Below are positions 14,439-59,731 of a stretch of DNA of 64,000 bases, one piece after another. Source of the stretch: Galerina marginata. Taxonomy: Eukaryota; Basidiomycota; Agaricomycetes; Agaricales; Galerinaceae. Both the position numbers and the translations under genes were made by a program. The stretch's first letter is position 1. Each line of letters starts with the position of its first letter. Below the pieces are notes generated by a model. The model made no database searches and had not been told where the DNA came from. It saw nothing but the letters and a program-made list of their open reading frames with translations. The DNA lies in NCBI GenBank assembly GCA_023014335.1, contig JAECYW010000001.1, forward strand, positions 3,596,001 through 3,660,000, written 5' to 3'.

Positions 14439-16472
14439 CTAGCCACAAGCAGGATCAACAGTACTCGGCACAGCCAACTTAATCCTCTCTTCATTAGTGG
14501 CACCGGCAGGCCATTTGTAGGTGCCATTTTCCGTCGACTCAGGTGGTGCATACCCACACAGTTCGAACACCATTAGCTGGCCCATAAATCCATCCTGTGG
14601 CCACATGCGCGGATGTCCTATCGTAATAAATCAAAAGGAATAAGGATTACTTTGGCAAGCATTCAATAAGCGCAGGACACGTACCGTATTTGATAACCTG
14701 CAATGCTTCAGTAAGTTGAATTCGGCAAGACCACATCACTATATGATTTCTTCAAGGTGAGCATGGTTACTCGAGTATGCGTGCCAAAATCATGCTGGCT
14801 TACAGTACGCAGCAACTACGGCTGGACCTCTTGAAATTCCATGCACTGAGTGTACAAAAACTACGCCTCCAGATCTCAGTGCTCGATCAATAAAATCACA
14901 AGCTGCTGGCAAGTGAGTGAGCAAATTTGTATTATTGGTGTCTTCCACAGGAATCCGCATGTGGACGAAGCCTGATTCCGGTGATTCTCCAGGGACCGAG
15001 TCCGTACACACGGAGAGAATATGGGTAACTTTTTTTTGGCTCAGATATCGCGATGAGCGTGCGCCTACGATGCTAAAGGTCAAGACTGCCGTCAATTACA
15101 CGTATTTGAAGGAGCAAGAACGCCTTAAAAAGACCACTCACCTTCCCATGAAAAGCTTGTCCTCGATGACAATGTCTTCCCAGTGCCCATCAGGATGAAT
15201 TTCCACAGTAATTCGGCGAAAGTATTTCGCATCAGACTCGTCGCTGCGTCGAAGTTTAATCCTGTGATCAAACCCAGTTGGGGTCGATTTCAAAGCTTTT
15301 CCTGCTGTAAGGTTTTTGTCTGACGAGAGGCTAGAGTCTCTTGCGGGAAGTTCTCTAGCCGTTGGAGCCTGAGGTCTATCGCTCCATACATTGTCTACAT
15401 GGAACAGACCCGAACATTGAAGGCTGCGAAACAAAGCGTGAAATGAATCACGTTGGAAAAAAAAAGATGATAAATTAAATTAAATGTGACGCACCATCTC
15501 GTCCAACTACCAGGTTCCGACGAAACCACAGTGTTAAGATAAGAGCACCGCGGACATCTTCCCAGGTTGTCCCGGACACCTTTTCTCGATCGAAGCACAA
15601 TGCTCATCTCAATTCTTTCTCCCACTTGCACCTGACCTAGCTTAGACCGGTCAATAACCCTGTCAATGCCAGATGCGATTATCTGGTAGTCCCCTTGTTG
15701 GATATAGTGCTCGCCAATACGACCTTTGGAATACCCTTTGAGAACGTGGTCGAACGCCTAATCGTAAGCGGTAAGTATTGACTTCAGATAAGATCCTATA
15801 GCCTACCTCCCAAGTAACACAGAATAAAATTGGAATGGGTATGGTTTCTCCCAGTGGATCTACTACCTCAATTGTATGGTCCTTAACGCCATGCAGGGAG
15901 CGGGAACCACCTCTGTTTTCGGTGTACATTCGACCTTCGGTAAGATAATTTGACTGGTTTCCAGAGTCCATCCATCCTACACTATCAAACTTCCCCGATT
16001 AGTCAAGTAACATTAGCAGATGCTAGAATAAAGCACAGACTCACGAATTGAGGACCATCAACAGTGTAACAAGCTTCACTCTATGATGAGCTAGCTTGGA
16101 GCTGAGCACCGCCGTCTCATCAGACACAGCCCACACGATTTTCCGCCAAAGGGAGGCTATACCAGTCAGCGACAATGCCTGCTGGCAGGCAATGATCTTT
16201 TCCTCGAATACCTTTAGCGCCAAATAGCACTGTGCCACCTCTGGCTTGGCAAAGTGAGCCAGTGGCTCTCCAAGTGGCGTCGAGCCATAGCGCTGAAGCG
16301 CGAATTCCACCATGATAAGGGTACTTTGTAGAGATCGTAGCTCGATCGCGAGGATGTCGCACTCCTTGGAGAGGCTCTTGTTGTCGTAAAGCACTTTTAC
16401 TACTTGGGCTGCGAGGCCGGCGGTGGCTAGAATATCGCCTAGAGAGCCAGCGGTAAATGCTACCACTGACAT
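14439..16472 (-). CDS. Ubiquitin-like domain protein fused to a DSP pseudophosphatase
   Basis: Exon 1 (16472 to about 16047) encodes about 140 helical residues beginning MSVVAFTAGSLGDILATAG, like the N-terminal domain of fungal STAND/ubiquitin-like proteins. Next is a ubiquitin-like fold with IPIPILFCVTWEAFDHVL and GEHYIQQGDYQIIASG, then a Cys4 ribbon: CPRC, and after splicing CLQC. A linker leads to a dual-specificity-phosphatase fold: KLFMGSIVGARSSRYLSQKK, VTHILSVCTD, HMRIPVED, then FVHSVHGISRGPAVVAAY. The signature HCx5R is HSx5R here (codon TCA at about 14850), so catalytic Cys is Ser, and the usual Ser/Thr after the Arg is Gly. With the acceptor ATAG near 14740 the frame continues as AAYLMWSCRIQLTEALQVIK and MWPQDGFMGQL to stop 14439, so the fold is otherwise complete. 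Likely a STYX-like substrate-binding protein rather than an enzyme. Confidence 0.75.
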
Positions 16473-24272: not shown

Positions 24273-25943
24273 TTACCCCCACCGCACACCACCTCTCTGC
24301 CTTTTCCGTCCTGGGATAGCACTTTCACTATCATACCTGCCATTTGCCCATCCAAAACACGCCCAAAAGGCCGAAGATATCCAAGTCGCGGAATAGACTT
24401 CGAGGACTTTGATGGGGAATCCATGACAGCCACTTGCTTTGAGGAAGAGGGAAAGCGGCGAGTTGCTGGCTTTGTTACCCTGCAGTGGTTTGACGCCCGT
24501 GAGTCTCAGCGTCTCGAGAGAGGGGAAAGGGTAGGAGCAACTCCTTGAGTTTGGGTCGAGTTTCTGGTCCGTGAGTTTGCAGATTGTCGTCAATGAGGAC
24601 TCATGTGCCTGAAGCACCTCTATGGCGGAAAAATCTGCTAAGGAAAGAAAAGATGTATAACAGGATAAGGCTGGGGCATCAAAGTGGAGATCAAGCGTAC
24701 GGACGCGGGGGAAACTAGCGGGATTAAATGTAAACGCAAGAACGAGGTCGTTGAACGCTGTCAATTCGTTGTCGTCGAATTTTTCAGGAGACAATGATAC
24801 TGGGCCAAATCCAAAATTGACTCTGAAGAAGGGGGGATTTTCTCCAAGGCGCGTGGAGGTGTCGGTAAAGCTGAACGCTTTCGAAGAACAACACAAGGCA
24901 ATCCGAGTGGCGGTGTGATTTTGGTAAAAGAGCTTTAGGTATTTTGATAGGGCCCGGTGGGTGTCTCGGAGGACCGGGGTGGTGAGACGGTTATGAAGGC
25001 GGTTGGAGGCGCCCTTGACGACGCTTAAGGATAGAGAACACCCCTGTGCTGGGGTTATGTGGTTGAGCACCCGGGAGCAAACACAAAGGACGTCAGAGAG
25101 GGAGATGGCAGTCAACTTAGGGAAACTGAGGTGTGGGAGGTTGGGTTGGTCAGGTGGATACAGAATTCCTTTTAGTCCAAGGCGCTCCAGCAGCGGCATT
25201 TGCTCGATGGCTTGAAAGGTTTTATGAAGGGTAATAGGCGATGTGAAGAAGACAGAGCGGAGGGTTGATAACCACGGGGCACTAAGGGAGAAATATATCT
25301 GGGTGGCCACGAACTCACGGAGAGATGGTGCGTGGTTGGAGAAAAGATCGAGTGGATGATCTCGGGGGGAATGAAAGAGCAGATGGGCTTCGTTGACAAA
25401 CTTCATGGCAAAGTTAAAATCCAGCCCGTCCCTAAAGCCGTCGTGATAGCACCGGACCTTGAAAGTCTCAAGATTGGGTGCCGGTTGAAGAATTGTCTGC
25501 CAGCTCGTAGAACGGTCGTCCATTGACAGGGGGACGATATTCACGACGAGTTTTTGTATTCGTGTCCAATTGTTCTTGATGAGGGACTCAAAAAATGTCC
25601 ATGCCCGAGATTTGTTTTGGCGCTTGCTGATCGAGCCCCGTATCCAGAGAAGGGCTCCCTCCGATCGGCGAAGTATCTCGTTCACCCAGTCTTCCTTGAC
25701 CTTGGAATCCTTGCAGAGCACGTTCAGGTCGATGAGTTTTCCCCAGATGGACGGGTTGTCCGCGAGGATCTGGCGCCATCTTTGGGAGACTAAAGAGGCG
25801 TGATGGGTGTCTTTGAGAGCGTTGATGTTGAAGAACATATCAGCGTTCATCTCAAAAATCAGCAAGAGCAGTTCGTTTGGGAATGTGTGGATGCCGGTTT
25901 CGATTGTCGCCGTATTGTCATCGCCTGTAGAATCCTGTTCCAT
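24273..25943 (-). CDS. F-box-like protein F1 (frameshifted tail)
   Basis: Intronless, 556 codons. I choose the ATG at 25943 (MEQDSTGDD...) rather than the upstream one at 26027, because the leader ACCCACTGTTCAATTCCCG just before it is shared with the paralogs and all copies begin ME-x-D/x-P. Residues 15-65 form the F-box-like motif: HTFPNELLLLIFEMNADMF and SLVSQRWRQILADNPSIWGK. The rest resembles leucine-rich-repeat-like receptor sequence (FELYP leader excluded). Compared with F8, about 14 nt are missing near 24391; the family ending LGYLRPFGR... is read only in another frame (stop at about 24245), and this frame ends at 24273 with about 35 unrelated residues. Expected role, from the family, is substrate receptor of an SCF ubiquitin ligase. 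The altered tail may or may not matter. Confidence 0.75.
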   Translation of the reverse strand: MEQDSTGDDNTATIETGIHTFPNELLLLIFEMNADMFFNINALKDTHHASLVSQRWRQILADNPSIWGKLIDLNVLCKDSKVKEDWVNEILRRSEGALLWIRGSISKRQNKSRAWTFFESLIKNNWTRIQKLVVNIVPLSMDDRSTSWQTILQPAPNLETFKVRCYHDGFRDGLDFNFAMKFVNEAHLLFHSPRDHPLDLFSNHAPSLREFVATQIYFSLSAPWLSTLRSVFFTSPITLHKTFQAIEQMPLLERLGLKGILYPPDQPNLPHLSFPKLTAISLSDVLCVCSRVLNHITPAQGCSLSLSVVKGASNRLHNRLTTPVLRDTHRALSKYLKLFYQNHTATRIALCCSSKAFSFTDTSTRLGENPPFFRVNFGFGPVSLSPEKFDDNELTAFNDLVLAFTFNPASFPRVRTLDLHFDAPALSCYTSFLSLADFSAIEVLQAHESSLTTICKLTDQKLDPNSRSCSYPFPSLETLRLTGVKPLQGNKASNSPLSLFLKASGCHGFPIKVLEVYSATWISSAFWACFGWANGRYDSESAIPGRKRQRGGVRWG

Positions 25944-26344
25944 CTTTCGGGAATTGAACAGTGGGTACAACTCGAAGGTAGGTGGGTCGGTAGTACTGTA
26001 GTACTTATAAGAAAATTTGGAAAGCAACCGCCCTTCGAAGATCGAACCGTGTCAGCAACTCGTTGTTATTCTCGGACTTTGAAAACATGTCGCGTCAATA
26101 TATTGTGCTTGCAGGGCTTTAATTTTTTACGTGTTGATTGGTATACAACTCTCGCTTGTCTCCAAATATCAGCAGGCCTAGGGCAAAGCCTTCTTCATTG
26201 CTACAGCGGACACTTGTGGTAAGTATATCTTCGCTCGGAAAAAGACAACAAAAAAATTAGATCCCTATGCACGAATCACTAGGTTACGAAATCCATAGAT
26301 TGCGCACTAGAAAGGAAGTCAGAACTGAGGCTACCTACTCAAAG

Positions 26345-32901: not shown

Positions 32902-34578
32902 TCAATACTCAAGAAAGAGTCTATACGCGTTAACCCCTCCGCACACCACCTCTCTGCCCTCCTCTCCATGTGACAGAACCTTTAGCGTCATACCTACCAT
33001 GTCCTGATCCAGAATACGGCCAAAAGGCCGAAGATATCCGAGTCGTGGAGCTGTTGCAGTTGGATATACCTCGAGTACACTGATGGGACACCCATGATCG
33101 CGGCAAGCGTTAAGGAAAAGGATGAGGGGTGAAATGCGAGCTGCCTCGACGGAGCTCGGTCCTTTAATTCCTGTCAGTCTCAGCGTCTTGAGAGCGGGGA
33201 AAGGGAAGGCTTCAGAGGGTAGGTTGTGTTCTCGGCCGTTGAGCTGCAGTATTGTCATCAAAGCGGACTCCTGCGTATGAAGCACCTCAATACCAGAAAA
33301 ACATGATGCGGCGAGGAAGGAGGTGTATAAGGCCGAGACGTCAAGTTCGAGGTTGAGCGTGCGGACGAAGGGAAAGGAAGCAGGTTGAATTGCGAATACA
33401 GAAATAAGGGTGTCGAGGGCTGTCAATTCGCCGTTGTGGAATCTGGTGGACGAGAATGTTTCTGGTCCAAATGGAAAAGAGATCGTGAAGAAGGGGGAGT
33501 CATCGCCGGAGCGAGGACTCGTATCGGTAAAGCCGAATGCCTCGGAACGGCAGCATAGTAGAATCCGAGTAACTGCGTGGCTCTGGTAAAAGGTCTTCAG
33601 ATATTTTGATAGGGCTTCACCAGCATCCAGAAGGATCTGGGTTGTAAGAGTGGTACCATCGCAGTCCAGCGCGGTTAGGGAAAGAGAACACCCAGGTGCT
33701 GGGGTTATGTGATTGAGGACGCTGGCGCAAACATCGAGAAAGTCGGACAAGACGATATCAGTCAACCTGGCGAAGCTAAGGAGTGGGAGGATGGGTTCAT
33801 CGGGTCCATATTGAAGTTGTCTCAGGTCAAGGCTCTCAAGCAACGGCATTTGCTCGATGGCCTGGAAAGCTCTACGAAGGGTAACAGGGAACGAAAAAGA
33901 GATGGAGCGGAGGTTCGATAACCACGGCGCGCTAAGGGGGAAATATATCAGCGTGGGCACAAATTCCCGCAGGGATGGTGCGTTGTTGGCGAAGAGCTGA
34001 TCTTCGCGGAAACGAGAGAATAGCAGCCATTTTTCACTGGAGACCGTCCAGGGGGCATGAAAACTCAGTCCTTCCGAAATGTTGTGGTGATAGAACCGGA
34101 TTTCGAACCTCTCGAGGTTGGGTGCAGGTTGGAGAATCGTCTGCCAGGTCGGAGAAGGCTCGTACATGGGGCCGATGTCCACGACGAGCTTTTGTATTCG
34201 TGTCCAATTGTTCTTGATTAAAGGCTCAAAAAACCTCCATGCCGGAAGTTGGTCTTGGCGCCCGCTGACAGAGCCCCGTATCCAGAGAAGGGCTCCCTCC
34301 GATCGGCGAAGTATCTCGTTCACCCACTCTTCCTTGACTGTGGTATCCGTGCAGAGCACGTTGAGGTCTATGAGTTTTCCCCAGATGGACGGGCTGTCCA
34401 GAAGGATTTGGCGCCACCTTTTGGAGACTAAATTGGTGTGATGGGTGTCTACGAGAGCATTGAAATCGGCGAACATGTCGGCGTTCATCTCAAAAATGAG
34501 CAAAAGGAGTTCGTTTGGGAGGGTGTGGATGCCGGCTTCGATTGACGCCGTATCGCCTGCAGGATTCCGTTCCATCAT
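32902..34578 (-). CDS. F-box-like protein F3 (intact, mosaic)
   Basis: Intronless, 558 codons. Two ATGs stand together at 34578 and 34575 after the shared leader. Residues 15-70 hold the F-box-like block: IHTLPNELLLLIFEMNADMF and NLVSKRWRQILLDSPSIWGK. The central region has family landmarks SEGALLWIRGSVSGRQDQ, NNWTRIQKLVVDIG, TWQTILQPAPNLE, APWLSNLRSISFSFPVT and ITPAPGCSLSLTALD, and it ends RPFGRILDQDMVGMTLKVLS...LEY. The N-terminal half groups with F4/F6, while the C-terminal third (FPFGPETFSSTRFHNGELTA, ISPLILFLNACRDHGCPISV) is nearly that of F5. Likely substrate receptor of an SCF E3 ligase. Tandem with F4, repeating the F1/F2 layout. Confidence 0.85.
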   Translation of the reverse strand: MMERNPAGDTASIEAGIHTLPNELLLLIFEMNADMFADFNALVDTHHTNLVSKRWRQILLDSPSIWGKLIDLNVLCTDTTVKEEWVNEILRRSEGALLWIRGSVSGRQDQLPAWRFFEPLIKNNWTRIQKLVVDIGPMYEPSPTWQTILQPAPNLERFEIRFYHHNISEGLSFHAPWTVSSEKWLLFSRFREDQLFANNAPSLREFVPTLIYFPLSAPWLSNLRSISFSFPVTLRRAFQAIEQMPLLESLDLRQLQYGPDEPILPLLSFARLTDIVLSDFLDVCASVLNHITPAPGCSLSLTALDCDGTTLTTQILLDAGEALSKYLKTFYQSHAVTRILLCCRSEAFGFTDTSPRSGDDSPFFTISFPFGPETFSSTRFHNGELTALDTLISVFAIQPASFPFVRTLNLELDVSALYTSFLAASCFSGIEVLHTQESALMTILQLNGREHNLPSEAFPFPALKTLRLTGIKGPSSVEAARISPLILFLNACRDHGCPISVLEVYPTATAPRLGYLRPFGRILDQDMVGMTLKVLSHGEEGREVVCGGVNAYRLFLEY

Positions 34579-43355: not shown

Positions 43356-43553
43356 ATTGCCCGCAGGGCCATTAACAGGAATAGGCTTAGTCCCTCCTAG
43401 CCACTGTGATACTTACTACGTGCGGGCCGTACATACCGCCGGATAGATGACTCGCCAATCAATATTAAAATCGATCTTCGACATTGTCTTCCAACTTTCA
43501 TCTCCTTACCACGGACTCAGCAAGAGTTATACCCACTGTCCAACTCCCGAAAG
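43356..43553 (+). promoter_or_regulatory. F6 upstream region with shared F-box element
   Basis: About 200 bp. TGCGGGCCGTACATACCG at 43421-43438 is the clearest copy of the F-box upstream element; GCCAATCAAT follows at about 43453-43462, a CCAAT-type box. The leader ACCCACTGTCCAACTCCCG directly precedes the ATG at 43554 and is shared with F1-F4. Confidence 0.5.
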
Positions 43554-45236
43554 ATGGAATGGGATCCTACAGGCGATGATACAGTGCCAATTGAAACAGG
43601 CATCCACTCACTCCCAAACGAGCTTCTCTCGCTCATTTTTGAGATGAACGACGATATGTTCTCCGACATCAACGCCCTCAAAGATACGCATCACAGTGCT
43701 CTCGTCTCCCAAAGGTGGCGTCAGATCCTCCTGCAGCGTTCGTCTGTTTGGGGAAAACTTATAGACCTCAAAGTGCTCTGCAAGGATAGCGCAGTCAAGG
43801 AAGAGTGGGTGAACGAGATACTTCGTCGGTCAGAGGGAGCCCTTCTTTGGATACGGGGCTCTATCGCCGGGCGCCATGACCAACTTCGGGCATGGAGGTG
43901 TTTCGAGCCTTTAATCAAGAACAATTGGACACAAATACAAAAGCTCGTCGTGGATGTCGCATCGATTGACGAGCGTTCTTCGACCTGGCAGATGATTTTC
44001 CAACCTGCACCCAATCTTGAGACATTCGAAGTCCGGTTCTATCACTACAACCCAAGGGACGGGCTGAATTTTCATGCCCCTTGGACGGTTACCAGTGAAA
44101 AAAGGCTGCTATTCTCCCGTTATCCCAGATATAATCTCTTCGCCAACAATGCACCAGCTCTGCGGGAATTTGTGCCCACCCAGATATATTTTTCCCTTAC
44201 CGCTTCGTGGTTATCAAACCTCTGTTCTATCTCTTTTTTGTACCCTGTTACCCTTCATAGAACCTTCCAAGCCATCGAGCAAATGCCACTGCTGGAGCGC
44301 CTTGAACTCAAAGGAGTTCAGTATTCACCTGACCAACCCAACCTCCCGCACCTCAGTTTTCCTAAGCTGACCGCCATCGTTGTGTCCCACTTCCTCTTTG
44401 TTTGCGCCATGGTGCTCAATCACATAACCCCAGCACCGGGTTGTTCCCTCTCCTTGAGTGCCCTCGACCGCTCTAACGAGTATCTCACAGCCACAGTCTT
44501 CCGAGATGCCAAGTGGGCCCTATCAAACCACTTGAAGCTCTTTTACCAAAGTCACACAGCCGCTGAGATCGCCTTGCGTTGTCGGGCTCGAGCGTTCAGC
44601 TTTACCAGCACAACCACTGGCTCCAGAGTAAATCCCTCCTTTGTAGTCAATTTGCCATTTGGCCCAATGTCACTGACATTCCACCACTTGAGACCATTTG
44701 ATGACCTTATTCTTGCATTCAAGTTCAATTCTGCCAGTTTCCCCGTCGCCCACACGCTTGATCTCCAATTCGACATCCCAACCTCACACTGCTACACCTC
44801 CCTCCTTACCTTATCGGATTTTTCTGCCGTTGAGGCGCTTCATGTACAGGAGTCCTCGTTGACGACGATCTGCAAACTCAAGGAGCAAAAACTTAGCCCA
44901 GGCTCGAAAGCCTTGCCTCCACCTCAGGCCTTGCTTTTCCCCGCTCTCAAGACGCTAAGAATTACAGGCGTTAAAGTACCGCGGTCCTTCGACAAAGCCC
45001 GCATCTCACCACTCTTCCTGTTCCTCAAGGCCTATCGCCGGCATAAATGCCCTATCCAGGTCCTTGAATTCTACCCTGCGAATAGACATCCGCAGCTTGG
45101 AAATCTTCGGCCTTTTGGCCGTCTTCTGGATGCGGAAATGGCCGGTATGACGCTGAAAGTGTTGGCACAAGGTGGAGACAGCAGAGAGGTGGTGTGCGGG
45201 GGGGTTACCGCGTATAGACTATTTCTTGAGTATTGA
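43554..45236 (+). CDS. F-box-like protein F6 (intact)
   Basis: Intronless, 560 codons, start MEWDPTGDDTVPIETGIHSL after the shared leader. F-box-like block at residues 17-70: LPNELLSLIFEMNDDMFSDI and ALVSQRWRQILLQRSSVWGK. Family landmarks continue: SEGALLWIRGSIAGRHDQ, NNWTQIQKLVVDVASIDE, APALREFVPTQIYFSLTA, ITPAPGCSLSLSALD, and the end VVCGGVTAYRLFLEY. It is the intact counterpart of the broken F4, with which it agrees over the whole length, including YRRHKCPIQVLEFYPANRHP. F4 is in the opposite orientation across the inverted repeat. Likely an SCF-type substrate receptor. Confidence 0.85.
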   Translation: MEWDPTGDDTVPIETGIHSLPNELLSLIFEMNDDMFSDINALKDTHHSALVSQRWRQILLQRSSVWGKLIDLKVLCKDSAVKEEWVNEILRRSEGALLWIRGSIAGRHDQLRAWRCFEPLIKNNWTQIQKLVVDVASIDERSSTWQMIFQPAPNLETFEVRFYHYNPRDGLNFHAPWTVTSEKRLLFSRYPRYNLFANNAPALREFVPTQIYFSLTASWLSNLCSISFLYPVTLHRTFQAIEQMPLLERLELKGVQYSPDQPNLPHLSFPKLTAIVVSHFLFVCAMVLNHITPAPGCSLSLSALDRSNEYLTATVFRDAKWALSNHLKLFYQSHTAAEIALRCRARAFSFTSTTTGSRVNPSFVVNLPFGPMSLTFHHLRPFDDLILAFKFNSASFPVAHTLDLQFDIPTSHCYTSLLTLSDFSAVEALHVQESSLTTICKLKEQKLSPGSKALPPPQALLFPALKTLRITGVKVPRSFDKARISPLFLFLKAYRRHKCPIQVLEFYPANRHPQLGNLRPFGRLLDAEMAGMTLKVLAQGGDSREVVCGGVTAYRLFLEY

Positions 45237-45736
45237 CTCGGAGTAGGTAGACGTCATTTCTGACTTTTCTTTCTAGTATGGATCTCGTAACTTCATGAAT
45301 ACAGACCTAATTTTTTTTTCTTCCAAACCAAGATGTACAGTACTTACAACAAGTGTCTCTTTTGTACCAATGAAGAAGGCTTCACCCTGCGAATTAGATT
45401 TAATATCGAATCAATCCTTAATTAAGCTTTACATAGGATGTTTGTTGTTATGGTTGTTAAAATCCTTATTTTGAGAGCACAAATGGTTATCTAAAGTACG
45501 TACTCGACATGCTATGGGGCCAGGTTTGAGGTTAATCACTGGCGACGAGCGGAGGATCAGTTGGGACTTGCTGGAAACTGATGGATAAAAGGGAAAGCCC
45601 TCCAAGTCGAATCACTTCGTAACAAGTTGGTAATTTAATGCGGAACTACGGGGCCGGGCCGCCGGACATACGAGGATTTGACAGATCTCCTTATTCTCTC
45701 CAACTTTTGGTCATTCACACCTGAAAACCTCATCAT
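45237..45736 (+). promoter_or_regulatory. F6-F7 spacer with variant F-box element
   Basis: 500 bp. GGCGACGAGCGGAGGATCAG at 45541-45560 resembles the flank of the hairpin repeat found near 53.4 and 57.4 kb. GGGCCGGGCCGCCGGACATA at 45650-45669 is a variant of the F-box upstream element, and the leader before the F7 ATG is of the F5/F8 type. No gene was seen. Confidence 0.45.
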
Positions 45737-47298
45737 ATGGAAATGTATCCTCTAGGAAACGCAGAGCCGGTCGAAACGGGCATTCACAGCCTCCCTGACG
45801 AACTTATCTGTCTCATTTCCTCGATGAACGGCGATATGTTCTCCAACAACGACGCTCTCAAGGACACGCGTCGTACATCTCAAGTCTGCCATAGATGGCG
45901 CCGGATTCTCCTGGATTTCCCTTTAATCTGGGGAAGACTAATCGATCTCAACGCCCTCTGCAAGGTTACAGTCAAGGAAGAGTGGGGAAACGAGGTACTT
46001 CGTCGATCACAGGGAGCCTTTCTCTGGATACAAGGCCCGGTCATTAACAAAAATCGGTCCCGGGTGTTCTTTGAGCACCTCATATATAAGCATTGGACAC
46101 AAATACAGAAGCTCGTTGTGTATGTCCCTCCGTTTTATCTGGGTTATCTGAACTGGCAAATTATCCTTCAACCTGCCCCCGGTCTTGAGACCTTTCAAAT
46201 TCAGTTCTACCACCCCGATTCCTATGGTGGACTAAATTTCCGCCGCATATGGAGAGCTACCAGTGAAGAAAAACGCTTATTTTCCCGTTTCCCTCAAGAT
46301 GCTCGCCCCGCGCTCTTTTCCAACAATGCACCATCTCTACAAACATTTCTGGCCACCCAGATATATTTCTCCGTTAGCGCACCATGGTTATCAAACCTAC
46401 GTTCTGTCTCCTTTTCCTCGCCCGTTACCCTTCATAAAACATTTCAAGCCATCCAGCAAATGCCACTACTCGAGTGCCTTAATGTAGAAAAACTTCAATA
46501 CACACACGATAAACTCATCCTCCCACACCTCAGCTTCACCAGGTTGACTGATATCGTTTTGTCCGGCCGCTTCAATTTTTGCTTCCAGGTCCTCAGTCAC
46601 ATAACCCCAGCTGCTGGGTGTTTTCTTTCCTTATCGGCACGGGCCCGTCACGGTGAGAGTCGCACAACCCAGATCCTCCTAGATGCAAACAAGACCCTAT
46701 CAAAATACTTAAGAATCTTTCACCAAAGTCACCCAACCACTCAGATTTTATTGGTCTGCCGTCCCAGCTATTTCAAGTTTATAGATACAAGTCCTCGCCG
46801 AAGCAAGGACGGCCCATTCTTCAAAGTGTCCTTCCTATTTGGTCCAGAAACATTATCATCCCCAACGTTCCCCAACAGTGAATTGAGAGCCTTCGACGCC
46901 CTTATTTCCATATTCACAATTGGATCCGCTTCCTTTCCCTTCGTCCGCACGCTCGACCTCCACCTTGTTGTCCCGACCCTATACACCTCCTTCCTCTCCA
47001 CGTCACAATTTTTTGGTGTCGAGGTACTTCATACGGATGAGCCAGCTTTGACAACGATCGTGTCTCACCCTTCATCCATTTCCTTAACGCTTGCCGCGAT
47101 CATGGGTGTCCTATCACTGTACTTGAGGTTTATCCAACAATAACAAGTCCACGACTCGGATATCTTCAGCCATTTGAACGTATTCTGGATCAGGACATGG
47201 TAGGCATGACACTAAAGGTTATATCGCATGAAGGGGAGGAGGGTAGAGAAGTGGCGTGCGGCGGAGGCAATATTCAAAGACTCCTCCTTGAATATTGA
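45737..47298 (+). pseudogene. F-box-like F7, broken by a ~112-nt deletion
   Basis: Open for 468 codons from MEMYPLGNAEPVETGIHSLP, with the F-box-like block LPDELICLISSMNGDMFS and QVCHRWRRILLDFPLIWGRL and the subgroup marker GNEVLRRSQGAFLWIQGPVI. At about 47059, after ALTTI, alignment with F5 shows about 112 nt missing (through the FPALKTLRLTG block). The rest of the family sequence (ILFL-like helix, VLEVYPT, LGYLQPFERILDQDMVGMTL, final LEY at 47298) is present in another frame, and the actual frame stops at 47141-47143. The product would lack the last ~100 family residues. Subgroup as F5 and F9. Confidence 0.75.
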
Positions 47299-57445: not shown

Positions 57446-58063
57446 ATGTAACTTTCTTTGAATATAAACTGAAATAATCCAAAGTGTGCGGAAACACCAT
57501 AAAATAGAATTCATTTCTGGAACCATTGGAAATGTTTCTCAATAATAGTATCTGACTTCAGAAAATACCCATCATGATCACTGCGTTTGAATGGAGGTCT
57601 AACTATCGGTGTGCATTCTTTGGTTCAAGACTAGAACGGAGACCAAGCTGTCCGGGCTACCCGGCCAATTGGATCAGTTCTCGCGATCTTTACAAGTGAT
57701 GTTGACATCTCAAGTCTCAAGCGCCGTCAAAAATCATAGCGATCGAGTCCAGGCCACGAGGAGCAACGACGAGACGCCCGTTAGAGCTGTGGACTTTACG
57801 GCACCCGTATTGACCGATTCTACCAATACCCATTCTGTCAGTGCTTCGAGACTCGAGAGTACTTAATAGCAATCCTACGGCTCTTCCAACCCCCACAGTA
57901 AAGACGGACAGCAAAAAACCAAACTTGACAGGGGACGAGTTTTGCCGTGCGAAGCATCGGCCCTCAAGACCAAGTTTTAACCAAAGCCTGAGTGTTCGTT
58001 GCTTCCAAGTTCCAGGTTTATTGTCCCCATCTTTCAGTTATTTACACCTAAAAATCTCGTCAT
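57446..58063 (+). promoter_or_regulatory. F8 upstream region
   Basis: About 620 bp. The last ~36 bp before the ATG (CCATCTTTCAGTTATTTAC, then AAAATCTCGTCAT) are the leader type shared with F5 and F7. The GGGCC...ACATACCG element is not recognisable here. No gene was seen. Confidence 0.45.
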
Positions 58064-59731
58064 ATGGAGCGGTATCCTCCAAGAAATACAGAGCCAGTCG
58101 AAACGGGCATCCACACCCTCCCAAACGAACTTCTCTTTCTCATTTTTGCGACGAATGCCAATATGTTCTCCAACATCAACGCTCTCAAAGATACTTATCG
58201 CAGTGCTCTAGTTTCCCAAAGGTGGCGCCAGATCCTTCTAGACAGCCCGTCCGTCTGGGGAAAACTCATTGACCTCAACGTGCTCTGCACAAATACCACA
58301 GTAAAGGAAGAGTGGGCAAACGAGATACTTCGTCGATCGACGGGAGCCCTTCTCTGGATACGGGGCGCAGTTAGTGGGCGTCAAAACCGAATGTTTTTCG
58401 AGCCACTCATAAAGAACAATTGGATACGAATACAAAAGCTCGTAGTGGATGTTGCCCCCATTCACGGGCGTTCGCCAACCTGGCAAACAATTCTTCAACC
58501 TGCCCCAAATCTCGAGACATTCGAAGTCCGGTTCTATCATTACAACGCTAAGGAGGGGCTGAATTTTCATGCCCCTTGGACGGTATTCAGTGAAGAAGAG
58601 CTGGTATTCTCTCATTTCCCCCGAGATCATCTCTTTTCCAACATCGCACCATTTCTGCGTGAATTTGTGCCCACCCAAATATATTTCTCCCCTGGCGCGC
58701 CGTGGTTATCGAACGTCCGTTCTGTCTCTTTTACTTCGCCTGTTTCCCTTCATAAAATCTTCCAAGCCATCGAGCAAATGCCACTGCTGGAGCGCCTTAA
58801 CCTAGAAGAACTGCAATATTCACCCGATCAACCCAACCTCCCACACCTTAGTTTTCCCAGGTTGACTGTCATCGTCTTGTCCGACCTTCTCTTTGTTTGC
58901 TCCAAGGTACTCAATCACATAACCCCGGCACCAGGTTGTTCCCTCTCCTTAGACGCCCTCGACCGCCCTAATGACCTTCTTACAACCCCAGTCCTCCGAG
59001 ATACCCAACAGGCCCTATCACAATACCTGAAGCTCTTTTACCAAAGTCACACAGCTGCTCAGATCTCTTTACGGTGTTGTTCGGAAGCGTTCAGCTTTAT
59101 CGATACGACCACTCGCTTTGGAGTAGATCCTGCCTTCTTCGTAGTCAATTTAACATTTGGCCCAATGACGTTCACTCATGGAAGCTTCCTTGACAGCGAA
59201 TTGACGGCCTTCGATGACCTTGTTCTTGCGTTCACATTTAATTCCACTCGTTTTCCCTTTGCCCGTACGCTTGATTTCAACCTTGAGGTCCCAACCTTAT
59301 ACGCCTCCTTCCTTGCCTTATCAGATTTTTCTGCTATAGAGGCCCTTCATACACAGGAATCCTCTTTGACGACGATCCGCAAACTCAAGGACAAAAAACT
59401 CAACCCACGCTCAAAAACCTTCCCTTTCCCATTCCCCGCTCTTAAGACGCTGAGAGTCACCAACATCAAAGAACCGCGGTCTGTCGATGATGCCCGCCTC
59501 TCACCGCTTTTCCTCTTCCTCAAGGCCAGTCGCCGCCACAGATGCCCAATCAAAGTCCTCGAAGTCCATCCCACAACTACACATCCACGGCTTGGATATC
59601 TTCAGCCTTTTTGGCGTATTCTGGATCAAGAAATGACGGGTATGACAGTGAAAGTGCTGTCCCAAGAGGGAGATGGCAGAGAGGTGGTATGCAGAGGGGT
59701 TAACGCGTATAGACTCTTTCTTGAGTATTGA
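58064..59731 (+). CDS. F-box-like protein F8 (intact, chimeric head)
   Basis: Intronless, 555 codons. Its leader and first ~20 residues (MERYPPRNTEPVETGIHTLP) are of the F5/F7/F9 type, whereas the F-box block (NELLFLIFATNANMFSNINA, ALVSQRWRQILLDSPSVWGK) and body (NTTVKEEWANEILRRSTGAL, NNWIRIQKLVVDVAPIHG, APWLSNVRSVSFTSPVSL) are of the F1-F4/F6 type. The switch lies close to the F-box. Tail: LGYLQPFWRILDQEMTGMTV to LEY. It provides the intact reference against which the F1 tail deletion is seen. Presumed SCF substrate receptor; LRR-like region after the F-box. Confidence 0.85.
   Translation: MERYPPRNTEPVETGIHTLPNELLFLIFATNANMFSNINALKDTYRSALVSQRWRQILLDSPSVWGKLIDLNVLCTNTTVKEEWANEILRRSTGALLWIRGAVSGRQNRMFFEPLIKNNWIRIQKLVVDVAPIHGRSPTWQTILQPAPNLETFEVRFYHYNAKEGLNFHAPWTVFSEEELVFSHFPRDHLFSNIAPFLREFVPTQIYFSPGAPWLSNVRSVSFTSPVSLHKIFQAIEQMPLLERLNLEELQYSPDQPNLPHLSFPRLTVIVLSDLLFVCSKVLNHITPAPGCSLSLDALDRPNDLLTTPVLRDTQQALSQYLKLFYQSHTAAQISLRCCSEAFSFIDTTTRFGVDPAFFVVNLTFGPMTFTHGSFLDSELTAFDDLVLAFTFNSTRFPFARTLDFNLEVPTLYASFLALSDFSAIEALHTQESSLTTIRKLKDKKLNPRSKTFPFPFPALKTLRVTNIKEPRSVDDARLSPLFLFLKASRRHRCPIKVLEVHPTTTHPRLGYLQPFWRILDQEMTGMTVKVLSQEGDGREVVCRGVNAYRLFLEY

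What the first reader, a model, noticed from the sequence alone, without database searches (positions are those of the whole stretch)
14439..16472. Ubiquitin-like domain fused to a Cys-to-Ser dual-specificity pseudophosphatase
The spliced gene reads through an N-terminal STAND-like helical domain, a ubiquitin-like fold, a CPRC...CLQC ribbon and a complete DSP fold. The active-site motif is HSVHGISRG where an enzyme has HCx5RS: Cys is Ser (codon TCA) and the residue after Arg is Gly. Cys-to-Ser is the classic substrate-trapping change, and natural pseudophosphatases of the STYX type (Gly at Cys) bind phosphoproteins without cleaving them. A ubiquitin-like module tied to a natural phospho-binding trap would be a new kind of adaptor. 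I know of no such architecture with the Ser substitution, but cannot exclude it.
Basis: partly seen in the sequence, partly recalled or inferred. Interest (0 to 1): 0.75.

Follow-up and report, generated by a model that had tools for sequence, protein, structure and literature searches.

The report
Fungal ubiquitin-like protein with dead phosphatase
A mushroom gene joins a ubiquitin-like protein to a phosphatase whose catalytic cysteine has become serine; a second Galerina genome has the same changed loop and the fold is still kept, so it may be a working binding protein rather than a broken enzyme.

Summary
Seven exons (window 16472-14439, minus strand) join with GT-AG introns into 549 aa: helical bundle, ULD_2 ubiquitin-like domain, CxxC-CxxC ribbon and a full dual-specificity phosphatase (DSP) domain with HSVHGISRG. 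One exon carries both the ULD_2-family FRRI anchor and the first DSP strand, so here the fusion is in the DNA. Ser is no error or private allele: Galerina marginata CBS 339.88 has the same loop, but its annotation splits the locus and the joining stretch there was not seen in frame. The DSP is a copy of a standalone Cys-bearing DSP gene still in this genome: three introns match in position and phase, and the old start codon is gone. The core appears constrained, though more relaxed than its parent. Sister ULD_2 proteins carry other tails, MIT-like or CCCH. Natural Cys-to-Ser DSPs are known (STYXL1, STYXL2), so the Ser is not new; the architecture is, in what I could search. Most likely a phospho-binding, non-hydrolysing tail on an expanded fungal adaptor family. 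Binding, ubiquitin-pathway contact and expression are untested; an alternative intron could give a DSP-less 314-aa form.

The parts
16045..16472 (-). exon 1: N-terminal helical bundle, aa 1-143
   Evidence: Spliced frame. Model of the orthologous P0001: helices 11-29, 36-61, 68-101, 106-115, 119-140.
15807..15981 (-). exon 2: linker and first part of the ubiquitin-like domain (to aa 201)
   Evidence: acceptor chosen to keep frame with exon 1.
15495..15757 (-). exon 3: rest of ULD_2 (to aa 257) and first CxxC of the ribbon (C269, C272)
15142..15423 (-). exon 4: second CxxC (CLQC), linker, YFRRI anchor (Y356 at 15224-15222) and first DSP strand (DKLFMG); one uninterrupted exon holding both halves of the fusion
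14804..15072 (-). exon 5: DSP core with D427 (14942-14940) and HSVHGISRG (S458 TCA at 14849-14847, R464, G465)
14685..14738 (-). exon 6: DSP helix (LMWSCRIQLTEALQVIKY)
   Evidence: same intron borders and phase as the canonical DSP gene, read by eye from DNA printed.
14439..14617 (-). exon 7: DSP C-terminal helix, tail and stop
15355..15409 (-). possible alternative intron inside exon 4; its use shifts the frame and gives a 314-aa form without DSP, like G. marginata model P0001
   Evidence: Computed; P0001 is 314 aa with a matching end. No RNA evidence.

Best explanation
A single gene of a Galerina-like mushroom encodes a pseudophosphatase adaptor. SHOWN from sequence: a ULD_2-family protein (helical bundle, ubiquitin-like domain, CxxC ribbon, YFRRI) carries at its tail a DNA copy of a standalone DSP gene with its introns; the copy lost its start codon, its catalytic Cys (now Ser458) and the Ser after the loop Arg (now Gly465), and kept the fold, Arg464 and Asp427. 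INFERRED: the DSP tail cannot hydrolyse phosphate by the Cys mechanism but still holds a phosphorylated partner, probably one shared with the active paralogue, and the N-terminal module links that partner to the machinery common to its family, or the tail shields it from the active DSP.
For: Open spliced frame; both domains over Pfam cut-offs; fold model of the G. marginata DSP part matches DSPs, several of them Cys-to-Ser mutants; same HSVHGISRG in a second genome; Cys-bearing paralogue with three introns at the same position and phase (read by eye); old start codon aligned to GGG; minimum base edits between the two genomes 7 of 396 in the DSP core against 9 in an 81-base segment that is mostly intron 4, Fisher p about 1e-4; sites invariant in 24 Cys-bearing relatives kept at 30 of 40, variable ones at 20 of 46, p 0.004. 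Natural Ser DSPs are thought to act by binding or competing (PMC3917250), STYX does so (PMC10211241); passages only.
Against: No RNA, binding or interaction data. The fusion DSP core differs more between the two genomes than its Cys-bearing paralogue (125/132 against 173/175 identical) and than the ULD (81/81), and departs more from the family's invariant sites than the standalone Cys-less DSPs: constraint is relaxed. G. marginata annotation splits the locus, and its stretch between the ribbon and the residue equal to M381 was not seen in the joining frame, so a real break there is not excluded. The ULD is internal and ends without a free diglycine, so it is no conjugation tag.
Confidence: 0.47

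Rival explanations
1. The DSP fold is kept only as a protein-binding or stabilising surface (scaffold, or dimer partner of the active paralogue), without phosphate in the pocket.
For: The residue after Arg is also changed (Ser to Gly) and ten of 40 invariant family sites differ; pseudophosphatases can act as scaffolds or allosteric partners (PMC10211241, passages).
Against: His457, Gly461, Ser463, Arg464 and Asp427 are kept in both genomes.
Confidence: 0.25
2. Two products rather than one: an alternative intron (15409-15355) ends the protein after the ribbon, giving a ULD_2-only 314-aa form; the DSP part is rarely translated, or in G. marginata is cut off.
For: The deposited G. marginata model P0001 ends so, and the same GT...AG exists here and gives 314 aa; P0016 is a separate model; the G. 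marginata joining stretch was not seen in frame.
Against: P0016 begins at an internal Met (M381 here) and reads through intron 4, so it lacks the first DSP strand and looks like a fragment; its letters MGRQV imply a GC donor for intron 4 (inferred), which gene finders often miss (recalled). In the window the linker exon is open, with YFRRI and the DSP strand together.
Confidence: 0.23
3. A decaying enzyme on its way to a pseudogene.
For: Faster change than the Cys-bearing paralogue, long stem in the tree, loss of Cys and of the Ser after Arg.
Against: The whole frame is open in the window and the DSP core is gap-free against G. marginata; protein-level change in the core is several-fold below intron change.
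Confidence: 0.15
4. An unusual active hydrolase using Ser458.
For: None beyond the kept pocket.
Against: Cys-to-Ser abolishes activity in several DSPs (PMC3917250, passage).
Confidence: 0.02

Closest known systems
Standalone Agaricomycete DSP of about 175 aa (own genome, L042; G. marginata P0017)
   Same: DSP domain; three introns with the same position and phase (by eye); 53-60% identity depending on the stretch.
   Different: HCVQGISRS with catalytic Cys, no ULD_2; 173/175 identical between the two genomes.
STYXL1 (MK-STYX) and STYXL2 (DUSP27)
   Same: DSP pseudophosphatases with Ser at the catalytic Cys (PMC8269279, PMC8907265, PMC3917250; passages).
   Different: Described in animals; STYXL1 has a CH2/rhodanese domain and His also changed to Phe; no ULD_2 named. 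The nearest relatives of the fungal protein are fungal HC-DSPs.
STYX
   Same: DSP fold without Cys; competes with DUSP4 for ERK2 (PMC10211241, passages).
   Different: Gly instead of Ser. PDB entry 2r0b is a weaker match (E 1.7e-9) than DUSP19 (E 3.5e-19).
ULD_2 (PF22893) proteins of Galerina, Gymnopilus, Flammula, Crassisporium
   Same: N-terminal module and ribbon; [YF]FRRI in P0002, P0003, P0004, P0005, P0006, P0009.
   Different: Other tails: MIT-like in P0003 and P0002, CCCH in P0005, unassigned in P0004, P0006, P0009; P0007 and P0008 models end before the anchor. No DSPc match in these eight.

Membership tests
Dual-specificity phosphatase (PF00782) | profile match over curated cut-off, full length | tested here: met
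   84.3 bits against 33.5, profile 2-131 of 133; model of the orthologous P0016 matches DUSP5, TMt 0.86.
Dual-specificity phosphatase (PF00782) | catalytic HCx5R followed by S/T | tested here: not met
   HSVHGISRG: Cys to Ser, and Gly after Arg.
Dual-specificity phosphatase (PF00782) | general-acid Asp | tested here: met
   D427 lies in an invariant column of the 39-row alignment; its role is recalled.
Pseudophosphatase of the STYX kind (works like) | DSP fold, Cys lost, phosphate-binding Arg kept | tested here: met
Pseudophosphatase of the STYX kind (works like) | binds phosphorylated partner without cleaving | not testable with these tools
   Needs protein.
STYX/STYXL1/STYXL2 lineage | common descent with the animal proteins rather than with fungal HC-DSPs | tested here: not met
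   Nearest relatives are fungal HC-DSPs, one with the same introns; STYX is a weaker match than DUSP19, 5 and 28. STYXL1/STYXL2 sequences themselves were not aligned and no animal STYX is in the tree.
ULD_2 (PF22893) | profile over cut-off | tested here: met
   51.2 bits against 24.5.
HeLo-like / MLKL four-helix domain | four-helix bundle with profile or clear fold match | tested here: inconclusive
Zinc ribbon | two CxxC knuckles and profile match | tested here: inconclusive
   C269/C272 and the CLQC pair from C289 present; Zn_ribbon_5 E 0.094, below cut-off.

The most novel reading that the evidence does not exclude
A fungal adaptor family (MLKL/HeLo-like bundle plus ubiquitin-like domain plus ribbon) works by swapping tails behind a fixed FRRI hinge, and one tail is a captured host DSP turned into a phospho-reading bait or decoy: it senses the partner of the active DSP and reports it to a ubiquitin-like or cell-death module, much as integrated decoys do in plant immune receptors (that comparison is recalled).
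Probability: 0.2. Interest if true: 0.75.

Novelty: new variant of a known kind. Interest (0 to 1): 0.5.

Why it matters
It is a traceable birth of a pseudophosphatase: the Cys-bearing parent-type gene and the captured copy with the same introns and a changed catalytic loop sit in one genome, and a second genome shares the changed loop. It adds a ubiquitin-like/pseudophosphatase architecture that I did not find elsewhere in the searches made, and points to a fungal protein family whose members differ by their C-terminal domains. Other losses of the catalytic Cys in the same small DSP family (Gly twice, Asp once among 38 aligned homologues) suggest that this fungal DSP becomes a pseudoenzyme repeatedly, which is open to test.

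Tried and rejected
Fusion as assembly or annotation artefact: rejected for the window, since one exon holds both halves; in G. marginata both parts are listed on a contig of the same length, 3,405,100 bases, but the joining stretch there was not seen in frame. Ser as sequencing error or private allele: rejected (two base changes; P0016 has an identical loop). A second near-identical copy in the genome: a DNA search with exon 5 (269 bases) found only the window itself. Fusion in other genera: the two searches with the long query scored only the candidates sharing most words (7,994 and 7,995) and listed no other protein with both PF22893 and PF00782; this is absence in those searches only. Neutral rate: no G. 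marginata DNA at hand, so I used minimum edits from protein letters and one intron; rough. The place of the fusion DSP in the tree is unsure (stem 0.72; the fork that holds it has 85/72; its P0016 row includes a misread N-terminus, so its end branches are inflated). Literature: searches (15 of 27 papers listed; none; 6 of 6; none; 10 of 62; none) listed no paper whose title or abstract start is on a ULD_2/DSP fusion or a fungal Ser pseudophosphatase; these are listings of one open-licence library. HeLo, Goodbye or NACHT_N profiles did not appear in the scans of the helical part, except PF17111 (listed there as PigL_N; its link to HeLo-like domains is recalled) below significance.

Full report
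What is there. The genome (69.3 Mb, 43 contigs; window = contig 1, 3596001-3660000) is an agaric close to Galerina: the best protein matches of this gene are from G. marginata CBS 339.88. On the minus strand, exons 16472-16045, 15981-15807, 15757-15495, 15423-15142, 15072-14804, 14738-14685 and 14617-14439 join, all with GT-AG introns of 49-71 bases, into 549 aa. A first joining with another acceptor at exon 2 was out of frame. Pfam finds ULD_2 (aa 177-257, E 1.5e-13) and DSPc (aa 380-509, E 8.8e-24), both over their cut-offs. The loop is H457-S458-V-H-G-I-S-R464-G465; the Ser codon is TCA; Asp427 of the VED loop is kept.

One gene or two. Exon 4 is one open stretch that holds the second CxxC, the [YF]FRRI motif shared with ULD_2 proteins P0002, P0003, P0004, P0005, P0006 and P0009 (the P0001, P0007 and P0008 models end before it) and the first DSP strand DIVIEDKLFMG. 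The canonical DSP starts MVWKNINAVIENRLFLG; in the DNA alignment its ATG falls on GGG of the fusion, so the old start is lost and the next in-frame Met is M381, inside the first strand's end. In G. marginata the locus is deposited as two proteins on a contig of 3,405,100 bases: P0001 (314 aa, ULD part) and P0016 (190 aa, DSP part). P0016 starts at the Met equal to M381 and reads through intron 4; its letters MGRQV imply a GC donor (AG|GCAAGT) where the window has AG|GTGAGT (my inference from the sequences). That can make a gene finder break a gene (recalled). P0001 uses an extra intron that also exists here (15409-15355) and here too gives 314 aa. The G. marginata stretch between the ribbon and M381 is therefore not seen in the joining frame: the fusion is shown in the window's genome, and for G. 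marginata only the two parts and the identical loop are shown. A DSP-less splice form is possible in both; only RNA can settle the ratio.

Where the DSP came from. The own-genome search gave 14 DSPc match rows, this gene included. The nearest to the fusion is at C1:2053890 (60% identity over 383-478), a standalone 175-aa DSP with HCVQGISRS, orthologous to P0017. The three introns of the fusion's DSP part, which split codons 383 (phase 2), 473 and 491 (phase 1), have the same position and phase there (read by eye from the DNA printed). The DSP was therefore copied as genomic DNA. Of 40 homologues of the DSP part, 38 were aligned (P0048 and P0055 left out); at the catalytic column 33 have Cys, 2 Gly (P0024, P0031), 1 Asp (P0045), 1 Ser (P0016) and 1 a gap (P0038). 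P0024 also has Gly after Arg. So among these Ser is confined to the two Galerina genes, and other members of this small family have lost Cys in other ways. Two more (P0042, P0046) have Cys but lack the loop Arg.

Is it kept. Between the two genomes the helical part is 138/142 identical, the linker 32/34, the ULD 81/81, the ribbon 32/36, the DSP core 125/132, the tail 28/34 plus one gap; the Cys-bearing paralogue is 173/175. With no G. marginata DNA at hand, I counted the fewest base edits that turn the window's DNA into any DNA coding the G. marginata letters: 7 of 396 in the DSP core, 9 of 81 in a segment that is 69 bases of intron 4 plus 12 exon bases (at least three of the nine are a length difference; 60 shuffled introns needed 21 or more, mean 26). 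Fisher p about 1e-4, taking the nine over 69 bases. A first count (12 of 84) had wrong borders and is replaced. The C-tail needs 9 of 105. Sites invariant in 24 Cys-bearing relatives are retained at 30 of 40 and variable ones at 20 of 46 against P0017 (p 0.004), and 30 of 40 and 18 of 46 against P0019, itself one of the 24 (p 0.001). Left out of 39 rows were 15: the window protein and P0016, the reference P0017, nine gapped, partial or outlying rows (P0038, P0046, P0047, P0049-P0054) and the three Cys-less rows. Against my reading: the standalone Cys-less DSPs keep 37/40, 38/40 and 36/42 of such sites, so the fusion is more relaxed. In the tree the fusion pair has a stem of 0.72 and an unsure place.

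The family. In a tree of N-terminal parts the fusion groups with P0003, P0004, P0005 and P0006, all from Galerina (98/97 for the six rows, P0001 included). Behind the FRRI anchor these carry an MIT-like tail (P0003, E 8e-4, below cut-off; over cut-off in Gymnopilus P0002), a CCCH finger (P0005, E 5e-5, just below cut-off), and tails without a match (P0004, P0006). So the module is shared and the tails differ. The own genome has at least 13 ULD_2 matches.

How it works, most likely. Loss of Cys removes the nucleophile; Cys-to-Ser abolishes activity in several DSPs and makes Dusp6 dominant negative (PMC3917250, passage). Kept Arg and Asp leave a phosphate pocket. STYX competes with DUSP4 for ERK2 (PMC10211241, passages). 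By analogy the tail holds a phosphorylated partner, perhaps the substrate of the active paralogue, and the N-terminal module does what it does in its sisters. These last two steps are inference. The ULD is internal and followed by the ribbon, so it is not a conjugation tag.

Novelty. Ser for Cys is known in STYXL1 and STYXL2 (PMC8269279, PMC8907265, PMC3917250; passages). The ULD_2 plus pseudo-DSP architecture was not seen outside the two Galerina genomes in the two protein searches whose length window admits it, nor in the paper listings. I call it a new variant of a known kind.

Changes after checking against the calls: the fusion is now claimed for the window's genome only, with the unseen G. 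marginata stretch stated; '24 active relatives' became 'Cys-bearing'; intron positions are given by codon; the general 95-99% identity claim was dropped. Because of the unseen stretch the main confidence went from 0.5 to 0.47 and the two-product rival from 0.2 to 0.23.

Noticed in passing
window 24276-26051(-), 32905-34578(-), 43410-45233(+), 45725-47140(+), 58052-59728(+): Five long ORFs with F-box-like matches (E 3.7e-6 to 4.5e-4; two of the five over the Pfam cut-off), interleaved with similar-sized ORFs without a match: an apparent F-box gene cluster.
   Followed up: no
P0024 (Vararia minispora), P0031 (Roridomyces roridus), P0045 (Mycena filopes): Standalone DSPs of the same family with Gly, Gly and Asp at the catalytic Cys and DSPc matches over cut-off: pseudophosphatases seem to arise repeatedly here.
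   Followed up: partly
P0042 (Plicaturopsis crispa), P0046 (Volvariella volvacea): DSPs of the same family with the Cys but Gln or Ala at the loop Arg (HCAYGQSQS, HCTQGISAS): possibly further inactive forms.
   Followed up: no
P0002 (Gymnopilus dilepis): Tandem ULD_2-MIT-ULD_2-MIT protein, deposited as low quality; may be two neighbouring genes read as one.
   Followed up: no
L043 (C23:2020000-2029000) and L044 (C23:2029000-2036000): ULD_2 gene pieces side by side with different tails (MIT-like and CCCH), and a further N-terminal half in L044 that matches the start of P0005: a local array in which tails could be exchanged.
   Followed up: partly
intron 4, window 15141-15073, against P0016: In G. 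marginata the intron seems to have a GC donor and an open frame of a multiple of three bases, so its retention would also be readable (inferred).
   Followed up: partly
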